From Nodularia sp. NIES-3585 (GTDB lineage Bacteria > Cyanobacteriota > Cyanobacteriia > Cyanobacteriales > Nostocaceae): a stretch of 64,000 nucleotides of DNA. Below the pieces are notes generated by a model, which saw nothing but the letters and a program-made list of their open reading frames with translations, was not told the origin of the DNA and did not search any database. The stretch covers positions 3,133,270 through 3,197,269 of the forward strand of contig NZ_BDUB01000001.1 of the NCBI RefSeq assembly GCF_002218065.1. The letters run 5' to 3'. Shown piece after piece: positions 5,278 through 15,775 of this stretch. A program made the translations under genes and the position numbers. How positions within the stretch are numbered: the first letter of the stretch is position 1; each line of letters starts with the position of its first letter.

Positions 5278-6140
5278 GGACTCCTCTAGATTTTAAATCT
5301 GGAAACGCTTTGGGGTAAATTGTCAATAGGTCGTTTTTCACGGCGTAAATATAGATCCTAAAATCACAGCCTTTTGACTGACGATTAGGGGTCATAGCCG
5401 CAAATAAACTCAAATTGTGGTAATTGTAGAGATTCCCAAATATAACGCCCCAAGGAGCTGATAAACTCTTGTTTAGGCAGGTTTTACGCAATCTTTCCTT
5501 TGCCTAAAGGTATGCTGTTGATTACCTACTTCTAATGCATATAGGTTGATCGCAGCAAGCAACAAATTGGGTGAAAGTGGCTTGGCTGTGATGCTAGAAG
5601 TAAAGGTGAACCTTTGGCAGTTAGTTTTATTGTACATCGCTATTGAAAAATCCTTCATTAAGGCAATCTTTGTATATTTATCTAGTGATATTTACCACTA
5701 AATTTTGAGTAAAAGTTATCAAATAAAAATATTATTTATTGTTTAATTTTTCATGAATCTAGAATAGAATATTTCCATTGCCAGGTATATAACCAACATT
5801 ATTTATCCTGGTTTTGACGTGATCAGACATGGGCTATTAGCGGTAATCGCTGATCAAACAGAAACTTGATCAGGACATAAATGTTTTAGTTTTTACATAA
5901 AGAATTGTATCTAACAATTAGAATAGGGTAAATCATCGCAGGTTTGTGGTGATAGCTTGAGTGGTCAGAAAATTTACACTCAAGATTTAATTATTTTTAG
6001 TGACATAAATGATTTCTTTATATCTTCTATAGAGCTTTCGTTAACTAGATAACTAACTTTACTTGCTTCTATAATCTAAAGAATTCGACCATCACTATGT
6101 TCAGTGGTGGAGTTGAAATCCAATAGAGAGGAAAGTCAAA
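5278..6140. promoter_or_regulatory. Long upstream region of the peptide locus
   Basis: About 860 bases without a convincing gene; two reading frames of 60-75 codons here have no domain and poor composition. A perfect 8-bp inverted repeat with 8 bases between arms (ctgatcaa at 5850-5857, ttgatcag at 5866-5873), plus another gatcag at 5821-5826, is a candidate operator ahead of the precursor gene at 6141. The precursor is preceded by a good ribosome binding site (gagagga near 6125-6131). Confidence 0.4.
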
Positions 6141-6392
6141 ATGGCAAAGAATCAAAATGAGCGTCGCACTCAATTTGAAATTAATGATTTGATTGATGAT
6201 GCTGTAAACAATGCAGTAGAAAGAAGAAATCAAGCATTAGATGCTGATTCAGATTTGTCAGGCTTGTCTGAAGAAGAAGCTGCAAATATTTCCGGCGGTC
6301 AGGTGACGACAAAAATTGCGATCGCAGGTTACCGCCCTATTTGTCCTCCAATTACACTGGGCATTATTTACATCCCACCAACAATTAAGTAA
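6141..6392 (+). CDS. Double-glycine leader precursor peptide, Pro-rich core
   Basis: An 83-residue probable precursor of an exported peptide. Residues 1-53 form an acidic, helical leader (FEINDLIDDAVNNAVERR, then LSEEEAANISGG) ending at Gly52-Gly53, the cut site used by C39-peptidase ABC transporters. The 30-residue core starts at Gln54 and has six prolines, one cysteine (YRPICPP) and a hydrophobic end (IIYIPPTIK). The same leader style occurs in cyanobacterial bacteriocin-like peptides. The ATG is preceded by a GAGAGGA ribosome binding site. It heads a plus-strand run with a Cys-rich protein, a Nif11 precursor and a radical-SAM gene. The export genes lie about 4 kb away on the other strand. 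Activity is unknown. Confidence 0.75.
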   Translation: MAKNQNERRTQFEINDLIDDAVNNAVERRNQALDADSDLSGLSEEEAANISGGQVTTKIAIAGYRPICPPITLGIIYIPPTIK

Positions 6393-6437
6393 TTTGAGCC
6401 TGAAGTAAAAACAGTTTCTTTGCTAGAGGCTTGATTA

Positions 6438-6875
6438 ATGGAAAATTTGCCTACTGAAAATACCACACTCTGTCCCAGTTCTAGACCAGAAGCTGTAAAT
6501 AGTGTTGTCTTTGGAGTTATCGGTGGAACTGTAGCAGAACCTCGTGTAGCTTATCTCAAGCAGCCACAGCCTGTCACAAGTGAACTATTAGCCAAGGCTA
6601 GTCCCATTACACCTGCCGAAATATTCCGTACAGCTTCACCTTGCGCGACTAAAAATTGTCAGCATTTTGATGGACAAGATTGCCGTCTCGCAATGCAAAT
6701 TGTAGAGAAATTACCTGCGGTAGCTAAGGAACTTCCTCCCTGTTCTATACGCAGAGATTGTCGTTGGTGGCAACAAGAAGGCAAAGCAGCTTGTAGGCGT
6801 TGCCCGCAAGTGATTACAGATAACTACAATGCATCTGAACTAGTAATGAATGTGGCAAATTCTAGTGCTAGATAA
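6438..6875 (+). CDS. Cys-rich accessory protein of the peptide locus
   Basis: A 145-residue protein I cannot name. The first 60 residues are low in Cys (GVIGGTVAEPRVAYL and a Pro/Gln-rich segment). The second half has eight cysteines in pairs (CATKNC, then DC, LPPC, RRDC, CRRC), a spacing that would suit a metal or Fe-S site. It lies between two precursor peptide genes and has its own AGAGG ribosome binding site. That context suggests a role in modification, or as a partner of the radical-SAM enzyme, but this is inference. Confidence 0.6.
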   Translation: MENLPTENTTLCPSSRPEAVNSVVFGVIGGTVAEPRVAYLKQPQPVTSELLAKASPITPAEIFRTASPCATKNCQHFDGQDCRLAMQIVEKLPAVAKELPPCSIRRDCRWWQQEGKAACRRCPQVITDNYNASELVMNVANSSAR

Positions 6876-6907
6876 GCCAATTTGCAACTATATTTTAGGA
6901 GGAAATA

Positions 6908-7243
6908 ATGTCTCTCGAACACGTCAAGACTTTCTACGAAAAAATAGCAAAAGATGAGAGTTTTCGCGCTCAAGTTCAAGGTGCGACAAGTAAAGATGAA
7001 TGTAGCCAAATAGTTAAAAGTGCTGGTTACGATTTCACCCAAGAAGAGTTTGAAGAATATACTCTTCAATTGTTGGAATCCACTGCTAATGAAGGTGAAC
7101 TCCAAGATTTGAGTGAGGAAGAATTAGCAGCAGTTGTTGGTGGTGCAACAACAGGAATTGTGGGATCTATATTACCTTATATGGTCTTACTGTATGGGTT
7201 GCCACCAATGGATCTTTGGCCACAAAATAAATTTTTGAAGTGA
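6908..7243 (+). CDS. Nif11-type leader precursor peptide with LYG core motif
   Basis: A 111-residue precursor. Residues 1-65 are a Nif11-like leader (MSLEHVKTFYEKIAKDESFR start, YDFTQEEFEE helix), followed by LSEEELAAVVGG with the double glycine at 78-79. The core of 32 residues contains LPYMVLLYGLPPMDLWP. The Leu95-Tyr96-Gly97 unit matches the X-Y-G motif on which cyanobacterial radical-SAM spliceases act: they excise a tyramine unit and leave an alpha-keto-beta-amino acid, as described for the Pleurocapsa Plp system. A strong AGGAGG ribosome binding site lies 6 bases before the ATG. The intact leader and core suggest it is still a substrate, although the adjacent maturase is truncated. Confidence 0.8.
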   Translation: MSLEHVKTFYEKIAKDESFRAQVQGATSKDECSQIVKSAGYDFTQEEFEEYTLQLLESTANEGELQDLSEEELAAVVGGATTGIVGSILPYMVLLYGLPPMDLWPQNKFLK

Positions 7244-7261
7244 CCTTTTGAGGATAAAACT

Positions 7262-7372
7262 ATGTCTCTAGAACACGTCAAAGGTTTCTACGCACAGTTA
7301 GCAAATGATGAAACTTTTCGCACTCAAATACAAGGTGTGCAAAGTAAGGATGAATGTAGCCAAGTAGGGTAA
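7262..7372 (+). pseudogene. Truncated second Nif11 precursor
   Basis: An ATG at 7262 with a GAGG ribosome binding site opens a 36-codon frame that closely copies the leader of the precursor at 6908 (MSLEHVKGFYAQLANDETFR, then QSKDECSQ). Similarity to that paralogue stops abruptly at about 7366, after which the frame reads two foreign codons and a stop. The rest of the leader, the double glycine and the core are missing. The next bases belong to the radical-SAM gene, so one deletion appears to have removed the 3' part of this precursor and the 5' part of the maturase. Confidence 0.8.
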
Positions 7373-7377
7373 ATGAG

Positions 7378-8535
7378 TTGACCACAGCAGAAGCCCTGGA
7401 TATGGTTAAACAAATGGCAGATGTTGGCATCACCGAAGTAACTATTATTGGTGGTGAAGCGTTTCTGCGTCCAGATTGGTTAGAAATTGCCCAAGCCATT
7501 ACCCAAGCGGGAATGCTCTGTGGTATGACTACTGGGGGTTATGGAATTACTTTAGATACAGCCCACCGGATGAAAGCGGCTGGGATTGGTGTAGTTTCTG
7601 TATCTGTAGATGGCTTAGAAGCAACTCACGATCGCATCCGTGGTAAAGAAGGTGCTTGGCAATGGGCTTTCAAAACCATGGGTAATCTCAGAGAAGCAGG
7701 TATTCCTTTTGGTTGCAATACTCAAATCAATCGCCTTTCTGCACCAGAATTCCCCAGTATATATGAACATCTCCGGGATGCGGGTATTTTTGCCTGGCAG
7801 ATTCAGTTAACTGTACCAATGGGCAATGCGGCGGATAATAATGAAATTCTGCTGCAACCTTACGAATTATTAGATGTCTATCCGATGATTGCTCGTGTTG
7901 CTAGACGTGCGAAGCAAGAAGGGGTAAGACTGCAAGCAGGGAATAATATCGGTTACTACGGCCCCTATGAGCGATTGTTAAGAGGTGATGGGGATGCTTG
8001 GACTTTTTGGCAGGGATGCAGTGCTGGACTCTCTGCGTTGGGAATTGAAGCCGATGGCGCTATTAAAGGTTGTCCTTCATTACCAACTTCAGCTTACACT
8101 GGTGGTAATATCCGCGATCGCTCTTTGCGAAGCATCATTGAAGACACGGAAGAACTCCGGTTTAATTTAGGTGCTGGTACTCCCCAAGGTACAGATCATC
8201 TCTGGGGTTTCTGCAAAACTTGCGAGTTTGCCGAATTGTGTCGAGGTGGTTGCAGTTGGACTGCACACGTATTTTTCGACAAGCGCGGGAATAATCCTTA
8301 CTGTCATCATCGCGCCTTGACTCATGAAAAAAATGGCATGAGAGAACGAGTATTTCTCCAACGTCGAGCCGATGGCAATCCCTTTGATAATGGGGAGTTT
8401 GCTTTGATTGAAGAACCGATTCATGCCCCTTGGCCAGAAAACGATCCACTACATTTTACAAGCGATCGCGTTCACTGGTCAGAAAGTTGGCAGGAAGAAC
8501 CTGATTTAGCACTATCATTAGTTGCTGTTAGTTAA
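7378..8535 (+). pseudogene. Radical-SAM/SPASM peptide maturase lacking its N terminus
   Basis: About 385 residues of a radical-SAM/SPASM peptide-modifying enzyme. The first codons (TTAEALDMVKQMADVGITEV) correspond to the region after the first helix of the barrel. GGEAFLRPDWL (the GGE loop), VSVDGLEATHD and QLTVPMG follow. The SPASM domain is intact, with QGCSAG, KGCPSLPT, WGFCKTCEFAELCRGGCSW and NPYCHHRAL. The CxxxCxxC motif that binds the catalytic [4Fe-4S] cluster is absent. The upstream frame is closed by a stop at 7357-7359, and 7262-7366 is precursor sequence. The only start available is a TTG at 7378. The protein is therefore probably inactive, or needs a cluster domain supplied in trans. 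The remaining frame has no internal stops, so the loss looks recent. Confidence 0.8.
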
Positions 8536-8560
8536 AAGCCAGTTTATCAATCCAATTAAT

Positions 8561-8746
8561 ATGAATAATCTAGCAACAAAAGAGATAAACCTTACTAGTG
8601 AAGTGGCAGGTAGTTTAGATGCTCAAGAACCACTTTTACCCCGTTCAGCTTGGAATAGTCAGTTAGTTTATTTACGGCTGGTTTTTAGAGCTAAGAAAGC
8701 TTTAGATAAAATAGAGCAAGAAGCAGGTGTGTTTAAAAATGAATAA
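8561..8746 (+). CDS. Small protein downstream of radical-SAM gene
   Basis: A 61-residue soluble protein starting with ATG at 8561, 25 bases after the radical-SAM stop and followed by a terminator. It has a polar N-terminal half (EINLTSEVAGSLDAQEP) and a basic helical C-terminal half (RLVFRAKKALDKIEQEAG). I do not recognise it. Its place at the end of the operon would fit a small maturase partner, as PlpY is for the PlpX splicease, but I see no sequence basis for homology. Confidence 0.5.
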   Translation: MNNLATKEINLTSEVAGSLDAQEPLLPRSAWNSQLVYLRLVFRAKKALDKIEQEAGVFKNE

Positions 8747-9294
8747 TTAAATTTTGCCACCAGCAAGTAGATCATTTTGATTTGCAAAAGTTAGAAATTT
8801 AATAACCCCGGTTTTTTAAACAAACCGGGGTTTTTGGCTTATATAAATTTACTGCTTATATGATAATACCATTCAGTTAAGGCTAAAGATTACAACTAGC
8901 TATAGGCTGGGTTAATCTTAGGAAACCCAAATTTGCATTTGTTTCATTGTTTTTGAATTGGCATCAGGCAATGCCTATATATCAGCTGTTTTGTCAAACT
9001 ACTACAGTTATGTTTAAATAAAGCTTATTTAGGTAGATATGATATTAAAAACTGTGTATACTTTGCCAGCCTAAAAAATTTATTTAAATTAAATTATCAG
9101 AATTAAGACAAAAATATTTCATTTAATCGATTAAAATAAAAATTTTTTGTTGTGGAACATACAATTTGGGCAATTATTGTTTTAATCATAAACCTTTTCT
9201 GTTACTATTTTGTCCTCTAAAATAAATCTAAAACTATTGCTTTTAAAAATAGAAGTAATAGAATTATTAATGTAAAGCAATTGAGGACAAACTC
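8747..9294. other. Intergenic region with terminator, AT-rich
   Basis: About 550 bases. Apart from the terminator at 8804-8835 it contains only AT-rich sequence leading to the next precursor gene. No reading frame is credible. Confidence 0.5.
8804..8835 (+). terminator. Rho-independent terminator of the radical-SAM operon
   Basis: An 11-bp perfect stem (aaccccggttt at 8804-8814 pairing with aaaccggggtt at 8822-8832) with a short AT loop is followed by a run of T (tttttgg). It closes the plus-strand precursor/maturase operon. Confidence 0.85.
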
Positions 9295-9468
9295 ATGAAA
9301 AAAGCACAAATTCAAATTACAGACCTACATTTTGAAAACTGCACTGAATTGACTGGTGAAGACTTACTTCTAATCCAAGGTGGTTGGGTATGGATACCTA
9401 TTGCAATTTACGTTGCAGCTAATTGGCCTGAAATTAAAAAAGGTGTTTCTGATGGCTGGAATCACTAG
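9295..9468 (+). CDS. Small double-glycine bacteriocin-like peptide (57 aa)
   Basis: A 57-residue peptide with a short leader (MKKAQIQITDLHF, then LTGEDLLLIQGG) ending at Gly29-Gly30. The core begins WVWIPIAIYVAANWP and ends KKGVSDGWNH. This is a class II bacteriocin pattern: the leader has the LxxEDLxxIxGG-type motif read by C39 peptidases, and the core is Trp-rich and amphipathic. The start ATG at 9295 follows a GAGGA ribosome binding site by 7 bases. It is not related to the Nif11 peptide upstream. The peptidase-containing exporter encoded at 12364-15084 is the obvious candidate for processing it. Confidence 0.7.
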   Translation: MKKAQIQITDLHFENCTELTGEDLLLIQGGWVWIPIAIYVAANWPEIKKGVSDGWNH

Positions 9469-9520
9469 AAATTACTATCTAATTTGTTAATTAATCAATA
9501 ATGTGGAGTTAATTGGAATC

Positions 9521-9697
9521 ATGGAAGCTACAATCATAATTCAAGACATCAACTCAGGTTACTTACAAGACTTGACAGAAGATAGTTTAATTAATTCAAT
9601 TTTTGGTGGTAGTGAACCTACTAAAGATACCAGCTTTCTTTATGATGTAGGTTGGGCAATCGGTAAAGGCGCTAGATGGGTATATGATTTATTTTAA
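9521..9697 (+). CDS. Second double-glycine bacteriocin-like peptide (58 aa)
   Basis: A 58-residue peptide. The leader (MEATIIIQDINS, then LQDLTEDSLINSIFGG) ends at Gly29-Gly30. The core begins SEPTKDTSFLYDVGWAIGKG and ends ARWVYDLF. The ATG at 9521 is chosen over an in-frame ATG-less extension because GTGGAG lies at 9503-9508 upstream. It sits 52 bases after the 57-residue peptide, so the two form a pair and could act as a two-peptide system. GxxxG-like spacing in the core (GWAIGKGARW) is typical of two-peptide class II bacteriocins. Function is inferred from layout only. Confidence 0.65.
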   Translation: MEATIIIQDINSGYLQDLTEDSLINSIFGGSEPTKDTSFLYDVGWAIGKGARWVYDLF

Positions 9698-9717: not shown

Positions 9718-9741
9718 TAGCCGTGCAAATTCGCACGGCTA
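9718..9741. terminator. Palindrome after the bacteriocin-like pair
   Basis: A perfect inverted repeat (tagccgtgc ... gcacggcta) with a short AT loop lies 21 bases after the stop of the 58-residue peptide. There is no clear T tract, so it could be a weak or bidirectional terminator, or a transcript-stabilising hairpin. Confidence 0.5.
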
Positions 9742-9874: not shown

Positions 9875-10618
9875 TCAGTTCTCAGAATTGAACCCGATAA
9901 TAACTTCAGTCTGATCAATCTGCTGTTTAATCCATGAATTAAACAAATCTGCTAAAATTTTAGGGCGCAACTTTTCTAATTCTGGTTGAATAATTTCTTC
10001 TACTAAAATTAAATAGGCTCCTCGCGAAGTCATGATTGGCTTAATTAGCTGGGGGGGTTTAGCAGCAAAAACGGCAGCAGAAATTTCTGGCTTTAAATCT
10101 TTGCGATATACTATCCCTCGATAACCACCTTGGCGTCGTAATTCTTTATCCTGGATATATTGGCAAGCAACATCATGAAAACTCACTTCACCTTCATGAA
10201 TTGCATAAAAAAGTTCCATTGCTAATTCTTCATCATCTAGTACAATTTCATAAATAACAGCACTAAAATAATTTAGCTGGTTTTGAAAAAAATAAGGTTC
10301 AACTTGGTCAGCAACAATATGTTTTGCTAATTTTGAAGAAATAATTGTGTGGTAAATTATATCTTCAAATTCTTTGATAGATAAACTATGTTTTTGTAGC
10401 CACTTCCAAGTCTCATCAGCATTTTCCAGTTTAGCAACTACTCGTAATTGATCTGCTGCTTTCTGAAGTTCCTCAACCTCTACTTTAATATCAGCTTCTT
10501 CAGCAGTTGATGTAATGATTTTGCGGATAACAATTTGCTCCACTATTTCTGGAATTTTACAGGCTAGCTTGATTTGCTCAAGAATATCTTCGCTAGTAAT
10601 AGTGATTGGTTGTGACAT
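9875..10618 (-). CDS. SurA/parvulin-like peptidyl-prolyl isomerase
   Basis: A 247-residue protein with the layout of SurA/PrsA-type foldases but no visible signal peptide. An N-terminal helical part (to about 125) is followed by a parvulin-like domain with ELAMELFYAIHEGEVSFHDV, a QGGYRGIVYRKDL segment and ISAAVFAAKPPQLIKPIMTS. GYLI-type residues appear in RGAYLILVEEI. It is the third gene of the minus-strand export operon, 113 bp after the HlyD-like gene. Parvulin-like proteins often accompany cyanobacterial peptidase-ABC exporters and may act as chaperones for the exported peptide. Here the 83-residue precursor has a Pro-rich core that could be a client; that link is inference. Confidence 0.8.
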   Translation of the reverse strand: MSQPITITSEDILEQIKLACKIPEIVEQIVIRKIITSTAEEADIKVEVEELQKAADQLRVVAKLENADETWKWLQKHSLSIKEFEDIIYHTIISSKLAKHIVADQVEPYFFQNQLNYFSAVIYEIVLDDEELAMELFYAIHEGEVSFHDVACQYIQDKELRRQGGYRGIVYRKDLKPEISAAVFAAKPPQLIKPIMTSRGAYLILVEEIIQPELEKLRPKILADLFNSWIKQQIDQTEVIIGFNSEN

Positions 10619-10731: not shown

Positions 10732-12312
10732 TTACAATTTCACTCCTCCTTGTTGCAGTTTCTTGAATGGATCAAGGAGAAAATCAATAATCCGACGCTG
10801 ACGCACAATCACTTCAGCAGTTGCAGTATCCCCAGGATTTAAGGGAATACATTGATCAGGACTAGGAATACAATGTTGATTCATCGCAATTTCTAAGTTA
10901 TAAGCCGCTACTCTTCCCCCAGGTGTATCTATTTCTGTTGTCGTTGGAGAAATTTCTAATAATTCGCCGGCAATAACTCCATAATCTTGGAAAGGATAAG
11001 CATCAAATTTAAGCTTAACTGGTAATCCCTTTGCTAAAGAACCGCTCTCAGTTGTAACCATTTGCGCTCTAATAATTAAAGGCGAATCTATTGGGGCGAT
11101 TTCGGCAATCATTGTGCCTGGCTGAACTACAGAACCAGCTTTTTCAATTGGTAACTGAAATACAGTCCCATTTACGTTTGCCTTTAAAATTCGTTGACTT
11201 ATTTGAAACTCCAAAGACTGAATTTGGCTTTTAGTTTGAGCTATTTCTGCATTGAGTGTGGAAATTTCTGTATCTATATTTTTTAATTGCTCCTGAGTTT
11301 TGAGTACCGCAAGTTTACCCACATGAGTTACTGTCTGATAACCATTTTCTTGTTCATTGAGCCGTAATTTAGCCTGTTCAATATCTGCATTAAATTGACT
11401 AAGAGTCCGTTCATAACTACTCTGCTGTTCTGCTAACCTTAACTTAGCTTGTCGAATATCTGACTTACTCTGTTCATATAATCTTTGCTGTTCTTTAGCG
11501 ATGTCTTGTTTTTCTATAACTGTAATTTCTGGGATAACCTCTTTTTCCCAAAGCTGACGGTAGCGGTTAACTTCTCGTTGAGTACTGGCTAAACTACTTT
11601 CTATTAAGTTATTAGCAGTTTGACTATACTCAACCGTCTGCCGGGCTTGATTGACCTGAGATAATTTTTCTTCTTTTTGTAAATTAGATGAACTTATAAT
11701 AGCATTCAAATTTTGTCTGGCTTGGTCTATTTGAGATTGTTTTTCTAATTCTTGAGATTGATTTTGTTGTTCTTGAGTGGCTAAAGCTACAACTAGTTGA
11801 CTCTGTAATAAATTTAATTGCGATCGCCTATTCAATTGCCCTTCTAACCTGTCTTTTACCTGTCGTAATTCGGCTTGGACTAATTCAGATTCCATGACTA
11901 ACAAAATCTGTCCATTCTTAACTACATCACCCTCTTTAACTTGAATTTCAGCAACGGTTCCAGCAACAGGAGCATCCAGCCTAACTGTCTTACCTTGGGG
12001 TTCTAATCTGCCTCTAGCTACACCTGTTTCATCTACCCGCGAAAACATTGCCCAAGGTAAAATAATCGCTACAAAAATAATTAAAAAGTATAGTAATCCT
12101 CTTGTCCAAACTTGTGGCAAGCTATCAAGCAAATCTTTGGTAACATGAGACCAATCATCAGTTGAGATGGCTATGCTTGATGTTTGAGATGTTTTCGCTG
12201 CCTGATTTTTATCTGAGTTGGCAATATCTGGATTCTGAGGTGTTAAAACTTCCTGATAGATTCCATCCTCATGAAGTTGGTTTTTTACTTGTCCATTTAA
12301 TGTATCTGTCAT
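10732..12312 (-). CDS. HlyD-family membrane fusion protein of the peptide exporter
   Basis: A 526-residue periplasmic adaptor. One membrane helix near residues 73-93 (GLLYFLIIFVAIILPWAMF) is followed by a lipoyl-like half motif (VRLDAPVAGTVAEIQVKEGD), a very long Gln-rich coiled coil (about 150-370), the second lipoyl half (ILKANVNGTVFQLPIEKAG) and a beta-barrel domain. Such proteins link an inner-membrane ABC transporter to a TolC channel. It lies 51 bp downstream of the peptidase-ABC gene on the same strand and is certainly its partner. The 70-residue cytoplasmic N terminus is polar and unremarkable. Confidence 0.93.
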   Translation of the reverse strand: MTDTLNGQVKNQLHEDGIYQEVLTPQNPDIANSDKNQAAKTSQTSSIAISTDDWSHVTKDLLDSLPQVWTRGLLYFLIIFVAIILPWAMFSRVDETGVARGRLEPQGKTVRLDAPVAGTVAEIQVKEGDVVKNGQILLVMESELVQAELRQVKDRLEGQLNRRSQLNLLQSQLVVALATQEQQNQSQELEKQSQIDQARQNLNAIISSSNLQKEEKLSQVNQARQTVEYSQTANNLIESSLASTQREVNRYRQLWEKEVIPEITVIEKQDIAKEQQRLYEQSKSDIRQAKLRLAEQQSSYERTLSQFNADIEQAKLRLNEQENGYQTVTHVGKLAVLKTQEQLKNIDTEISTLNAEIAQTKSQIQSLEFQISQRILKANVNGTVFQLPIEKAGSVVQPGTMIAEIAPIDSPLIIRAQMVTTESGSLAKGLPVKLKFDAYPFQDYGVIAGELLEISPTTTEIDTPGGRVAAYNLEIAMNQHCIPSPDQCIPLNPGDTATAEVIVRQRRIIDFLLDPFKKLQQGGVKL

Positions 12313-12363: not shown

Positions 12364-15084
12364 TTAGGCTGCGTTATCTAATTGCTGGTGATTCAGATAA
12401 AAATAATGTCCCCGTTTAGCCATTAACTCTTCGTGAGTACCACTCTCGATTAACACACCCCGATCCAGCACCAAGATTAAATCTGCATTACGTACAGTTG
12501 AGAGACGATGAGCAATTACTAATGTGGTTCTTCCCTTGAGAATGATATTTAAATTACTCTGAATAATTCGCTCTGATTCAGCGTCTAAATGGGAAGTGGC
12601 TTCGTCTAAAATTAACAATTGGGGATTACCTAATAATGCTCTGGCGATCGCAATCCTTTGTCGTTGTCCACCAGATAACATTCCCCCACCTTCACCAATT
12701 TGGCTTTCATAGCCCATAGGCATTTTTTTGATAAACTCATCAGCACCCGCTAATTGTGCTGCTTCAATAATTTCTTCTAATTTTGCCCCAGGATATCCTA
12801 AGCTAATATTCTCTCGAATTGTGCCGCCAAATAGAAAAGTATCTTGGTCAACTACCCCTACTTGTTCCCGTAAGGAACGTAAAGAAAGGCTAGTAATATC
12901 TTGTCCATCAATTAAGACTTTGCCATCTGTAGGCGGATACAACCCTAAAGCTAACTTAGAAATAGTTGTCTTTCCTGAACCACTCCGACCAACTAAAGCC
13001 ACCATCTGCCCTGGTTTAACCCTAAAACTGAGGTTTTCTAAAACGTTAATATCACTTTCTTGATGATAGCGGAATGTCACATTATCAAAGTGAATATGTC
13101 CTTGAATTGGTGGTAAAGATTGCCTAGCTTGATGCTGTAAATCCTCTTCTGGTTCCGCATCTAATACATCATTAATTCTTTCTACTGCAATGGTAACTTC
13201 TTGTAATTCACTCCACAAAACTGTTAATCTCTGAAATGGTGCAATCACATTTCCTAACAGCATATTAAATGCTACTAGCTGACCAATAGTTAACTGATTT
13301 TGAATTACTTGATATGCTCCAAACCACAATAAAGTAGTAGTCACAATTGCGTGAATAGAATTACTAAATATTTGCAGGCGATTACCAATGATTTGCCCAG
13401 AAAACCCAGTTTTAATTTCCTTATGCAATAACTCTTCCCAATGCCAACGCACTGTCTGTTCCACTGCGGTAGACTTCACTGTTCTGACACCAGAAAGAGC
13501 TTCAATTAGATAACTACTTTCAGTAGCATAAGCATTAAAAATCTCTCTGGAAATTTTGCGTAAAAAAGGTGTGGCAACCAAAGCCAATAGCACAAAAGGT
13601 GGCACAATTACTAAAGATAGAAGTGCCATTCTCCAGCTATACCAAAACATCAATCCTAGATAGATAAAAACAGTTAGTAAATCTAGCAGGATAGATAATG
13701 CCTCACCAGAAAGAAAGCGTTGAATTTTGCGGTTTTCTTGGACGCGAGAGGTAATATCCCCCACATAACGGGACTCAAAGTAACTCAGGGGTAGGCGCAG
13801 AGTATGGCGAATAAATGCCACGATTAATGCCACATCTATTTTATTAGCCGTGTGGTCTAATAAATATTGCCGCAAACCCATCATTGCCACACGGAATAAA
13901 CTAAAAATTAGTAATCCTAAACCGACGGCAAATAAGGTGAGTTCAGAACGCTGTACTACTACCCTGTCTAAAATTAACTGAGTGAATAAAGGGGTAATCA
14001 GTCCAAATATCTGAATAAACACAGATGCGGCAAATACTTCCAACATGACCAAGCTGTGAGGCTTGAGTAGTTCAAAGAATTGCCAGAAGGGAGTTATCGT
14101 GTCTTTGGTATCTTTTAAAAAGGCTGTGGGTTGCAGCAGTAGTGTATAGCCAGTCCAATTTTTTTTAAATTCAGCATGACTCAGAGTCCGTTGACCAATT
14201 GCTGGGTCGGCGACAATCACAGATTTCTGGGTAATTTCATAAACCACAATGTAATGTTTGCCTTCCCAGTGAACGATCGCAGGTAATGTTTGCTTGGCTA
14301 ACTGATCTAGGCTGGCTTTTACTGGTCGTGTGCTAAACCCAATACTTTCTGCTGCTGTGGATAAACCACGCAAAGATGCACCATTACGGTCAACATTAGC
14401 GATATCCCGTAAGCGATTCACACTAAAGCGTTTACCCCAATAACGAGACACCATTACTAAACAAGCTGCACCACAATCTGATGCACTTTGTTGGTTAAAA
14501 AATGGGTAACGGCGAATTGTTCGTTGCAATAAATGTCCAACTCGCTGGTTAGGAGTGGGAAAGTAAGCTTTGCTAAGTTTTTTGTCTAGCTTAGGTTCTG
14601 TAACTGGTGTTACTGGTGCTGAGGGAATTTCGGTTTGATTGTGTTGAGGTGATTGATCGGAACCCACCAGCAGCGAATTATGGGCATTTGCCTTAGCTAG
14701 TAAATGCTCTTTAATTGCGGGATATTTAATCATTAAGGCCGTTAAAACTGCGGCGGGAATAAAGCATAGTTGTAAATTAACACTTGCTCTAGCCCCATAG
14801 GGTTGGAAGTTAGCCTCTGGGAATAAGGTAAATTCCCCAAAAGACTCTCCAGATCCCAAAGTGGCAATTAACTCTCCCTGATCATTTAACAACCTGACTT
14901 TACCTGCGATCGCAATATATACTCCAGCTTCTGCATCTTCTCCTTGCCAAAACTTTCCAACTTTCGGGTTGAGAAATTTAAATTGTTGGTAGTAGCGCTG
15001 AAATTCCGCTTCGTCCAGGGAATGACCTAATGCATGGTTCAACTGTTGTAAAAAAACCACAGGATCGGATAGATTTTGCACCAT
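12364..15084 (-). CDS. Peptidase-containing ABC transporter with N-terminal cNMP-binding domain
   Basis: A 906-residue exporter of the PCAT class. Residues 25-135 form a CRP-like cyclic-nucleotide-binding domain (LGSGESFGEFTLFPE). Residues 193-315 are a C39 peptidase with catalytic Cys204 (SDCGAACL), His277 (EGKHYIVV) and Asp293 (VADPAIG), all present. The transmembrane domain spans about 345-640. The nucleotide-binding domain has Walker A GRSGSGKTT, signature LSGGQRQR and Walker B LLILDEAT. It should remove double-glycine leaders and export the cores; four such precursors lie 5-9 kb away. The same domain order is found in HetC of Anabaena. The ATG at 15084 overlaps the end of the HTH gene by 107 bp. 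Confidence 0.95.
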   Translation of the reverse strand: MVQNLSDPVVFLQQLNHALGHSLDEAEFQRYYQQFKFLNPKVGKFWQGEDAEAGVYIAIAGKVRLLNDQGELIATLGSGESFGEFTLFPEANFQPYGARASVNLQLCFIPAAVLTALMIKYPAIKEHLLAKANAHNSLLVGSDQSPQHNQTEIPSAPVTPVTEPKLDKKLSKAYFPTPNQRVGHLLQRTIRRYPFFNQQSASDCGAACLVMVSRYWGKRFSVNRLRDIANVDRNGASLRGLSTAAESIGFSTRPVKASLDQLAKQTLPAIVHWEGKHYIVVYEITQKSVIVADPAIGQRTLSHAEFKKNWTGYTLLLQPTAFLKDTKDTITPFWQFFELLKPHSLVMLEVFAASVFIQIFGLITPLFTQLILDRVVVQRSELTLFAVGLGLLIFSLFRVAMMGLRQYLLDHTANKIDVALIVAFIRHTLRLPLSYFESRYVGDITSRVQENRKIQRFLSGEALSILLDLLTVFIYLGLMFWYSWRMALLSLVIVPPFVLLALVATPFLRKISREIFNAYATESSYLIEALSGVRTVKSTAVEQTVRWHWEELLHKEIKTGFSGQIIGNRLQIFSNSIHAIVTTTLLWFGAYQVIQNQLTIGQLVAFNMLLGNVIAPFQRLTVLWSELQEVTIAVERINDVLDAEPEEDLQHQARQSLPPIQGHIHFDNVTFRYHQESDINVLENLSFRVKPGQMVALVGRSGSGKTTISKLALGLYPPTDGKVLIDGQDITSLSLRSLREQVGVVDQDTFLFGGTIRENISLGYPGAKLEEIIEAAQLAGADEFIKKMPMGYESQIGEGGGMLSGGQRQRIAIARALLGNPQLLILDEATSHLDAESERIIQSNLNIILKGRTTLVIAHRLSTVRNADLILVLDRGVLIESGTHEELMAKRGHYFYLNHQQLDNAA

Positions 15085-15703
15085 AAGTTTCTGACTCCAT
15101 ACCTAATTTTGCGAATTGAATTGGCATAAATCCGTTATTTTCGGGGATGTTGTCGGATTTCAGGTCGTGAATCAATATGCTGGAACTTTTCGTATTTTCA
15201 GATCCTGCTTCCGGCTCGTTTTTGGTTTTTGGGCGCGTAGATAATCCCATTTGTTTGAGCAGTCGCTTGATATGGCGATCGCTCACTTCAATGCCAAATT
15301 CTTTAGCCAAATGTTTTTGAAGCCAGTTGGCTGTCCAGCGGCGAAAAGCATAGCCGTAATCGCGGGGACTATTTAAAACTAGTTCTTTTAACCGTTCCAA
15401 GTATTCGTCATTGACTGCTTTCGGGCGACCAATGGGACAATCTTGCCATTGATGCGCCATACCAGTACGGGCTATATGCGTCCAATGTCTGACTGTTGCT
15501 GGACAACAACCTAAAATTTTACAAATTGCTGTTTGAGATTTCCCCTGGTCTGCTAGCAGCATAATTTCAATGCGCTGACGGTATGAATTTGGTAAATCTT
15601 CTTGTAAACTTTTTTGCAAAAGCTTCAATTGAAAAGACGTTAAAAATTTACCTGTGTAACTGTTTGCAACTGTCGATTTGGTGTTGGCTTGATAATCAGA
15701 CAT
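14978..15703 (-). CDS. HTH protein of IS630 N-terminal type, no catalytic domain
   Basis: A DNA-binding protein resembling the N-terminal half of IS630-type transposases. It has a first helix-turn-helix (IEIMLLADQGKSQTAICKIL), then GRPKAVNDEYLERLKELVL, a DYGYAFRRWTANWLQKHL segment and a second winged HTH (VSDRHIKRLLKQMGLSTR). The DDE catalytic domain is missing, so it is not a transposase on its own. I placed the start at the ATG at 15703; an ATG at 15757 and a TTG at 15775 are further upstream and also possible. The last 107 bases overlap the exporter gene, implying co-transcription. A regulatory role for the export operon is inferred. Confidence 0.7.
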   Translation of the reverse strand: MSDYQANTKSTVANSYTGKFLTSFQLKLLQKSLQEDLPNSYRQRIEIMLLADQGKSQTAICKILGCCPATVRHWTHIARTGMAHQWQDCPIGRPKAVNDEYLERLKELVLNSPRDYGYAFRRWTANWLQKHLAKEFGIEVSDRHIKRLLKQMGLSTRPKTKNEPEAGSENTKSSSILIHDLKSDNIPENNGFMPIQFAKLGMESETYGAKSIRSCGFFTTVEPCIRSFPGRSGISALLPTI

Positions 15704-15775
15704 AAACAGAAAATTAGTGAAAACATTTTTCCTGAGATAAACATACACATCTTTCATATTTTCTGATGTGTTCAA

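What the first reader, a model, noticed from the sequence alone, without database searches (positions are those of the whole stretch)
6141..9697. Peptide locus with four precursors of three leader types beside one PCAT exporter
Seen: four plus-strand double-glycine peptides (83, 111, 57 and 58 residues) plus a truncated Nif11 copy. One leader is acidic and not Nif11, one is Nif11, two are short class II type. One minus-strand PCAT/HlyD/parvulin operon faces them. Known: C39 peptidases read the double glycine. Inference: one exporter with relaxed specificity could serve several unrelated cores.
Basis: partly seen in the sequence, partly recalled or inferred. Interest (0 to 1): 0.75.

Follow-up and report, generated by a model that had tools for sequence, protein, structure and literature searches.

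The report
Broken spliceotide locus beside unnamed peptide module
In this cyanobacterium the enzyme expected to splice one small peptide has lost its catalytic motif through a short deletion, while a neighbouring peptide-plus-cysteine-rich-protein pair that has no family name is intact and recurs in many relatives, often without any splicing enzyme.

Summary
A terminator-like hairpin splits the interval into two units. Unit 1: p83 precursor, 145-aa eight-cysteine protein (Y145), Nif11 precursor with LYG, truncated Nif11, radical-SAM enzyme of the PlpX splicease type (TIGR04103), small PlpY-like protein. Against the two same-genus genomes that keep the enzyme, about 405 bp are missing here: the second Nif11 core and the first 31 splicease codons with CxxxCxxC. 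The genome holds no other copy, so splicing is very probably dead. The new part is p83-Y145, a separable pair: 90 of 101 full-length Y145 matches in 217 genomes have p83 directly upstream, 23 of 45 splicease-distant ones lie in genomes without a near-full-length splicease, and p83 cores share an x-Gly-hydrophobic motif resembling splice sites without tyrosine. No NCBIfam or Pfam model matches Y145. It is a candidate undescribed RiPP-like family; Y145's chemistry is unknown. Several precursor types beside one C39 exporter is already published (PMC3140520).

The parts
6046..6075 (+). promoter-like site upstream of p83
   Evidence: consensus match 10 of 12; 20 sites found against 12.6 +/- 3.8 in shuffles, so weak evidence
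6141..6392 (+). p83: double-glycine precursor with its own leader class; core QVTTKIAIAGYRPICPPITLGIIYIPPTIK
   Evidence: no family above cut-off
6438..6875 (+). Y145: 145-aa protein with eight cysteines invariant in 34 sequences; usual neighbour of p83
   Evidence: no NCBIfam or Pfam match, none in PADLOC; PHROGs only an 18-residue weak match of unknown function
6908..7243 (+). Nif11 precursor 1
   Evidence: TIGR03798 58.6 bits, PF07862 61.9 bits
7190..7198 (+). LYG motif (splice-site type) in the Nif11-1 core
   Evidence: sequence; 120 of 120 parsed Nif11 precursors of the relative loci carry XYG, 4 ORFs unparsed
7262..7372 (+). Nif11 precursor 2, cut to 36 aa; GG and core lost
   Evidence: PF07862 positions 1-34; full version with two YG sites in L003
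7362..7367 (.). deletion junction: AAGTAG here; AAGTAG on the left and AACTAG on the right flank in L003
7360..8535 (+). splicease-family radical SAM/SPASM gene without its 5' end: model positions 29-410 of 412, CxxxCxxC absent
   Evidence: TIGR04103 771.8 bits; full N-terminus in G001 and G002
8561..8746 (+). 61-aa protein, PlpY-like by size and position
   Evidence: matched in 79 of 79 relative loci
8804..8832 (+). terminator-like hairpin, 11 pairs, after unit 1
   Evidence: 9 terminator-like sites found, 2.8 +/- 1.9 expected
9295..9468 (+). 57-aa double-glycine peptide (unit 2)
   Evidence: related ORFs in 2 of 79 loci
9521..9697 (+). 58-aa double-glycine peptide (unit 2)
   Evidence: related ORF in 1 of 79 loci
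9718..9741 (-). terminator-like hairpin between the convergent units
9875..10618 (-). PpiC/parvulin-type rotamase
   Evidence: PF00639 33.8 bits, cut-off 21.7
10732..12312 (-). HlyD-type membrane fusion protein
   Evidence: PF13437 72.5 bits, cut-off 22.2
12364..15084 (-). PCAT: cNMP-binding domain + Peptidase_C39 + ABC exporter

Best explanation
The interval is a composite RiPP island. (1) Shown: a spliceotide-type cluster (Nif11 precursor with LYG, PlpX-type radical SAM, small PlpY-like protein) whose splicease lacks its first 31 codons, including CxxxCxxC, and whose second precursor lacks its core, as one missing stretch of about 405 bp relative to its relatives. Inferred: without the [4Fe-4S]/SAM motif no tyramine excision can occur, so Nif11-1 is at best exported unspliced and this half is decaying. 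(2) Shown: p83 and Y145 are an intact, separable pair that recurs in the same bacterial family with or without the splicease. Inferred: p83 is a secreted RiPP-like precursor; Y145 (eight invariant Cys, perhaps metal- or Fe-S-binding) is its dedicated maturation or carrier partner, acting on cores with the motif hydrophobic-[I/T]-x-Gly-hydrophobic-[I/V]; and the facing PCAT cuts at GG and exports it. (3) Inferred: the 57- and 58-aa peptides form a second, unmodified class-II-like unit using the same exporter.
For: Splicease family and truncation: TIGR04103 positions 29-410 of 412; CNLACxHC is present in 79 of 79 relative loci, and both same-genus genomes that keep the gene match from model position 1 (G001, G002). 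L003 equals G001 over the 3 kb compared, so these are two comparators, not three. Junction and size. The missing stretch has no second copy in the genome; the best match is the Nif11-1 paralogue. The two other radical-SAM matches are far below cut-off, 47.4 and 25.5 bits. XYG in 120 of 120 parsed Nif11 precursors, 4 ORFs unparsed. Changes specific to the window: 12 replacement to 18 silent, against 5 to 34 on the two relatives together, Fisher p 0.012. p83-Y145: 90 of 101 Y145 matches of at least 330 bases have p83 within 1.5 kb upstream on the same strand, median gap 65 bp, and 110 of 117 p83 places lie within 2 kb of a Y145 match. Separability: 45 such Y145 places have no above-cut-off TIGR04103 gene within 12 kb, 23 of them in genomes where none was found at E 1e-100. 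Core motif in 64 of 75 distinct cores, against 10.1 +/- 2.8 in shuffled cores, maximum 19. In 3 of 5 loci with a longer Y145 homologue, a precursor with another leader type and a similar core lies beside it.
Against: No expression or product data. The deletion could be an assembly fault; reads are not available. Polarised with outgroups the rate evidence thins: 5 derived replacement and 6 derived silent changes in the window lineage against 3 and 11 in the other two. dN/dS of the remnant is still about 0.09. The motif expression was written after looking at the cores, so its enrichment is descriptive. Y145 could be immunity or regulation; its AlphaFold model is unusable (mean pLDDT 41.1) and no solved structure matches. 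11 of 101 full-length Y145 lack an upstream p83 match and 7 of 117 p83 lie away from Y145; 60 of 113 Y145 places do lie within 12 kb of a splicease. One of the 45 'distant' places, G187:C10, is near a below-cut-off TIGR04103 match that was left out, and some lie near contig ends, where a splicease could be out of sight.
Confidence: 0.72

Rival explanations
1. One reading: an exporter-centred cluster in which one relaxed PCAT matures four unrelated, unmodified cores.
For: All four precursors have GG and lie beside a C39 exporter; C39 exporters serving several precursors are described (PMC3140520, PMC4997328; passages).
Against: Precursors 1 and 2 have partner genes and form their own unit; the genome has 7 C39 domains. 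Specificity could not be tested.
Confidence: 0.15
2. p83 is a second substrate of the splicease, and Y145 is an accessory of the splicease rather than of p83.
For: 60 of 113 Y145 places lie within 12 kb of a TIGR04103 gene; splice-site and p83 motif surroundings are alike; a distant Y145 homologue sits near a TIGR03913-like radical SAM.
Against: 45 full-length Y145 places have no above-cut-off splicease within 12 kb, 23 of them in genomes with none near full length; p83 cores mostly lack Tyr before the Gly.
Confidence: 0.12
3. Y145 is an immunity or regulatory protein for p83, not a maturation factor.
For: Close pairing also fits immunity; no fold or named family.
Against: Eight invariant Cys with invariant H76, F77 and G79 fit a metal-binding protein better than a membrane immunity protein; this is inference.
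Confidence: 0.3
4. The 405-bp deletion is an assembly or isolate artefact and the strain makes a spliceotide normally.
For: Reads not available; one relative, L029, has a frameshift in the same gene that could be a sequencing error.
Against: The genome is in 4 contigs with completeness given as 100; the junction joins two different genes at a short similarity, not the two Nif11 paralogues that an assembler would confuse; two other genomes hold splicease fragments.
Confidence: 0.1

Closest known systems
Spliceotides (plp cluster of Pleurocapsa sp. PCC 7319: PlpA, PlpX, PlpY)
   Same: Nif11 precursor with an LYG site, TIGR04103 radical SAM/SPASM, small protein directly after it; [quoted passage not shown]
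   Different: The enzyme lacks model positions 1-28 with CxxxCxxC, and the second precursor has no core.
Cyanobacterial C39-exporter bacteriocin clusters (Wang, Fewer and Sivonen 2011, PMC3140520)
   Same: C39 ABC exporters with several GG precursors of mixed leader types around them; a rotamase domain among the associated domains (passages read).
   Different: The passages seen do not mention a p83-like precursor with an eight-Cys partner; precursors there are grouped as NHLP, N11P, HetP, DUF37 and other. The supplementary precursor list was not seen.
EbfG1-4/PteB of Synechococcus elongatus (PMC4997328)
   Same: Four GG small proteins depend on one C39 exporter (passages read).
   Different: The passages describe a biofilm role and no modifying enzyme; the peptides were not compared by sequence here.
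TIGR03913 'GDL motif peptide' radical-SAM maturase
   Same: A distant Y145 homologue (E 1.3e-21 with the Y145 profile) lies about 2.7 kb upstream of a TIGR03913-like enzyme in L163.
   Different: That enzyme scores 569.9, below the 591.75 cut-off; an S8 protease lies between, and no p83 match was found in L163.

Membership tests
Spliceotide cluster | PlpX-type radical SAM (TIGR04103) | tested here: met
   771.8 bits, cut-off 725, but positions 1-28 missing. That PlpX belongs to TIGR04103 is recalled; a review passage gives IPR026482
Spliceotide cluster | CxxxCxxC cluster-binding motif of the enzyme | tested here: not met
   absent here; present in 79 of 79 relatives
Spliceotide cluster | XYG motif in the precursor core | tested here: met
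   LYG at 7190-7198; 120 of 120 parsed relatives
Spliceotide cluster | PlpY partner | tested here: inconclusive
   matching small protein in 79 of 79 loci; not compared with WP_019503879.1, which was not at hand
Spliceotide cluster | tyramine excision from the precursor | not testable with these tools
   needs mass spectrometry
Nif11 leader RiPP precursor | TIGR03798 above cut-off | tested here: met
   6908-7243: 58.6 bits against 32.3; the 36-aa copy fails with 23.4
Class II double-glycine bacteriocin | a curated model above cut-off | tested here: not met
   p83, 57-aa and 58-aa peptides: best 13.5 bits, all below cut-offs
C39 peptidase exporter (PCAT) | C39 + ABC membrane + ABC ATPase in one chain | tested here: met
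   PF03412, PF00664, PF00005
p83-Y145 module (proposed here) | GG precursor directly upstream of the eight-Cys protein, core with hydrophobic-x-Gly-hydrophobic motif | tested here: met
   the definition was drawn from the same sequences
p83-Y145 module (proposed here) | core is modified by Y145 | not testable with these tools
   no product data; structure model unusable

The most novel reading that the evidence does not exclude
p83-Y145 is a RiPP family of its own, without radical SAM, in which an eight-cysteine metal or Fe-S protein modifies the residue before a Gly that is framed much as in spliceotides (Pro, hydrophobics, x-Gly, hydrophobic-[I/V], then Pro-Pro). The same partner is used by precursors with two unrelated leaders (p83 type and nitrile-hydratase type), so the core, not the leader, would be what Y145 reads; spliceotides and p83 products would be two chemical routes to a similar bioactive shape, and the p83 route survives where the splicease is lost.
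Probability: 0.3. Interest if true: 0.78.

Novelty: new variant of a known kind. Interest (0 to 1): 0.52.

Why it matters
It turns a multi-precursor export reading into a concrete and testable one: a natural splicease knock-out, and a precursor-partner pair without a family name found together in 84 of the 217 genomes searched in the family. If Y145 proves to be a maturation protein, it would be a small cysteine-rich RiPP enzyme of a kind with no curated model; if not, it is still a marker for mining many such precursors.

Tried and rejected
AlphaFold of Y145 with 34 sequences gave mean pLDDT 41.1 and was not used for a fold search. Solved-structure search with the Y145 profile: three matches at E 1.3 or worse, taken as chance. 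PHROGs: an 18-residue match of Y145 to a family of unknown function, E 0.00029. PADLOC: nothing for p83, Y145 and the 61-aa protein. A second place for the missing DNA, such as a programmed rearrangement, was looked for and not found. Tandem repeats: none. Splicease loss shared by the genus was considered; of the four other genomes of the genus held, two have an intact gene and two have no such gene. L029 and L036, which first looked N-terminally cut, keep the motif: L029 is frameshifted, L036 lacks only an early start in that frame. A first branch count was spoiled, apparently by an unaligned indel in L096, and was replaced. Literature searches; no paper in the library holds both 'spliceotide' and 'Nodularia'. 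I made no literature search for p83 or Y145 themselves, which have no names; that they are undescribed rests only on family libraries (the longer and distant homologues). PMC11414181 was not held, nor did I see the 2018 and 2022 spliceotide papers that the review cites.
Full report
Observation. The four double-glycine peptides, the short Nif11 copy and the facing PpiC/HlyD/PCAT operon exist as described. The Nif11, rotamase, HlyD and C39 assignments hold by curated models. The window is C1:3133270-3197269 of a 5.77-Mb genome in 4 contigs; the nearest relative in the named genome collection is a Nodularia MAG, L003, with 97% identity of the splicease remnant (that tool may leave out the genome itself).

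Between the peptides lie a 145-aa cysteine-rich protein (Y145), a radical-SAM/SPASM gene and a 61-aa protein. The radical-SAM gene matches TIGR04103 at 771.8 bits but only from position 29. PlpX, the tyramine-excising splicease, works with PlpY on XYG sites, naturally MYG and LYG (PMC10533398 and PMC11002830, passages read). A review passage gives PlpX's family as IPR026482; that this equals TIGR04103 is recalled, not tested. The remaining Nif11 core has LYG, and 120 of 120 parsed Nif11 precursors near the relative enzymes carry XYG (4 further ORFs could not be parsed, 3 of which show YG in the printed tail and one of which is a chance match). Nif11 matches were found in 75 of the 79 loci. A match to the 61-aa protein is present in 79 of 79 loci; it fits PlpY by place and small size, PlpY being described as too small for the full RRE fold (PMC12710340, passages read).

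The deletion. L003 (identical to G001 over the 3 kb compared) and G002 carry two full Nif11 genes and a full enzyme. Against L003 the window lacks positions 7601-8005, about 405 bp, joined at AAGTAG (left flank AAGTAG, right flank AACTAG). Lost are the second precursor's leader end and its core, which has two YG sites in both relatives, and the first 31 codons of the enzyme with its CNLACQHC motif. That motif is present in 79 of 79 relative loci (the scan kept the best 80 of 111 candidates). The lost stretch was not found elsewhere in the genome, and there is no other TIGR04103 gene above cut-off. The remnant has no internal stop. It shows more replacement changes than its two relatives, 12:18 against 5:34 (p 0.012), but outgroup polarisation leaves only 5:6 against 3:11. 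Overall dN/dS is still low, about 0.09, so the loss is probably recent.

The break is not unique in kind. I fetched 20 of the 45 full-length Y145 places that had no above-cut-off TIGR04103 gene within 12 kb; two of the 20 hold splicease fragments: L143 (residues 1-43 and 331-414, middle missing) and L145 (residues 320-400). In the same genus, G003 has neither the enzyme nor Y145 nor p83, and G004 has only a 5'-cut Y145.

The p83-Y145 pair. Y145 matches in 98 of 217 genomes of the family, p83 in 87 of 217; in a sample of 386 genomes of the phylum Y145 matches in 22, all within the same order. Of 101 Y145 matches of at least 330 bases, 90 have p83 within 1.5 kb upstream on the same strand (median gap 65 bp) and 16 have a p83-like gene downstream; 110 of 117 p83 places lie within 2 kb of a Y145 match; 84 genomes have both. 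Y145 lies within 12 kb of a TIGR04103 gene in 60 of 113 places; 45 full-length places do not, 23 of them (in 22 genomes) where no TIGR04103 match at E 1e-100 was found. One of the 45, G187:C10, is near a below-cut-off match that I left out, and some are near contig ends. L046 has five p83 copies before Y145. Among the 79 splicease loci, 34 have both p83 and Y145, 2 p83 only and 7 Y145 only; the rest have neither within the DNA held. Y145 has eight cysteines invariant in 34 sequences.

Cores. A motif hydrophobic-[I/T]-x-Gly-hydrophobic-[I/V] (in fact a looser expression, written after seeing the cores) occurs in 64 of 75 distinct p83 cores against 10.1 +/- 2.8 in shuffled cores. One core Gly is invariant in 25 aligned precursors. 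Around 158 p83 core glycines the profile is Pro at -4 (54%), I/L/V at +1 (60%) and +2 (69%), Pro at +5 (43%) and +6 (38%); around 203 spliceotide YG sites it is Pro at -3 (62%), I/L/V at +1 (84%) and +2 (79%), Pro at +5 (37%) and +6 (26%). The p83 sites thus look like splice sites without tyrosine, with the upstream Pro one residue further off. Among the 11 full-length Y145 without upstream p83, five belong to a longer Y145 form (236-285 aa frames). In three of those five loci (L158, L160, L162) the precursor beside it has another leader, scored as NHLP for L160 and alike by eye for the other two, with cores such as ...VLGFVAL...HPIGLFEA and ...HTIGLVINDIL; in L159 and L161 none was listed, but the profiles used were not made for such leaders. 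This suggests that Y145 goes with the core type, not the leader type; it is inference from three loci.

Exporter. PCAT homologues at 70-87% identity lie in 11 of the 20 Y145 stretches; some stretches were cut by contig ends. The genome has 7 C39 domains. Terminator-like hairpins at 8804-8832 and 9718-9741 split the peptides into two units; the second (57 and 58 aa) has relatives in only 2 and 1 of 79 loci.

Mechanism. Shown: gene content, missing stretch, pairing, shared core pattern. Inferred: the splicease is dead; Nif11-1 may still be cut and exported unspliced; p83 is matured or carried by Y145 and exported by the PCAT; the short peptides leave unmodified. Y145's biochemical role is open: maturation or carrier is preferred, with immunity or regulation as the main rival.

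Known and new. Multi-precursor C39 clusters are known (PMC3140520, passages read). The splicease part is a broken member of a known kind. Y145 has no match in NCBIfam, Pfam or PADLOC and p83 none above cut-off, so the pair may be an undescribed family; no literature search could be made by name, and the main spliceotide papers were not available here.

Noticed in passing
L143 6793-7168 and L145 9044-9286: Two further broken splicease genes in other genomes, one with its middle missing and one with only residues 320-400 left, both beside a p83-Y145 pair.
   Followed up: partly
L147 8886-9254: Same-genus genome G004 keeps only a 5'-cut Y145 beside the PCAT operon; no p83 match.
   Followed up: partly
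window 8561-8746: The PlpY-like gene is far more diverged from the two same-genus genomes (63 and 71% aa identity, dS about 1) than its neighbours; cause unknown.
   Followed up: no
L188 4271-4744: A Y145 homologue whose C-terminus ends in ...GKPLYGF, a splice-site-like tail on the partner protein.
   Followed up: no
L149 8761-9141: A p83-type core with HGVV/QGVV repeats, much like spliceotide YGVV repeats with Tyr replaced by His or Gln.
   Followed up: no
L163 3657-8011: Distant Y145 homologue with an S8 protease, a 116-aa protein that contains LYGVM and a TIGR03913-like radical SAM: possibly a protein-splicing relative.
   Followed up: partly
G000:C1:4373618-4373791 and 4379426-4379812: Another Nif11 match about 6 kb from another C39 domain in the same genome.
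   Followed up: no
window 14978-15775: 265-aa minus-strand ORF overlapping the PCAT start, with helix-turn-helix domains (PF13565 44.6 bits, PF13518 36.6 bits), as in insertion-sequence proteins by recollection.
   Followed up: partly
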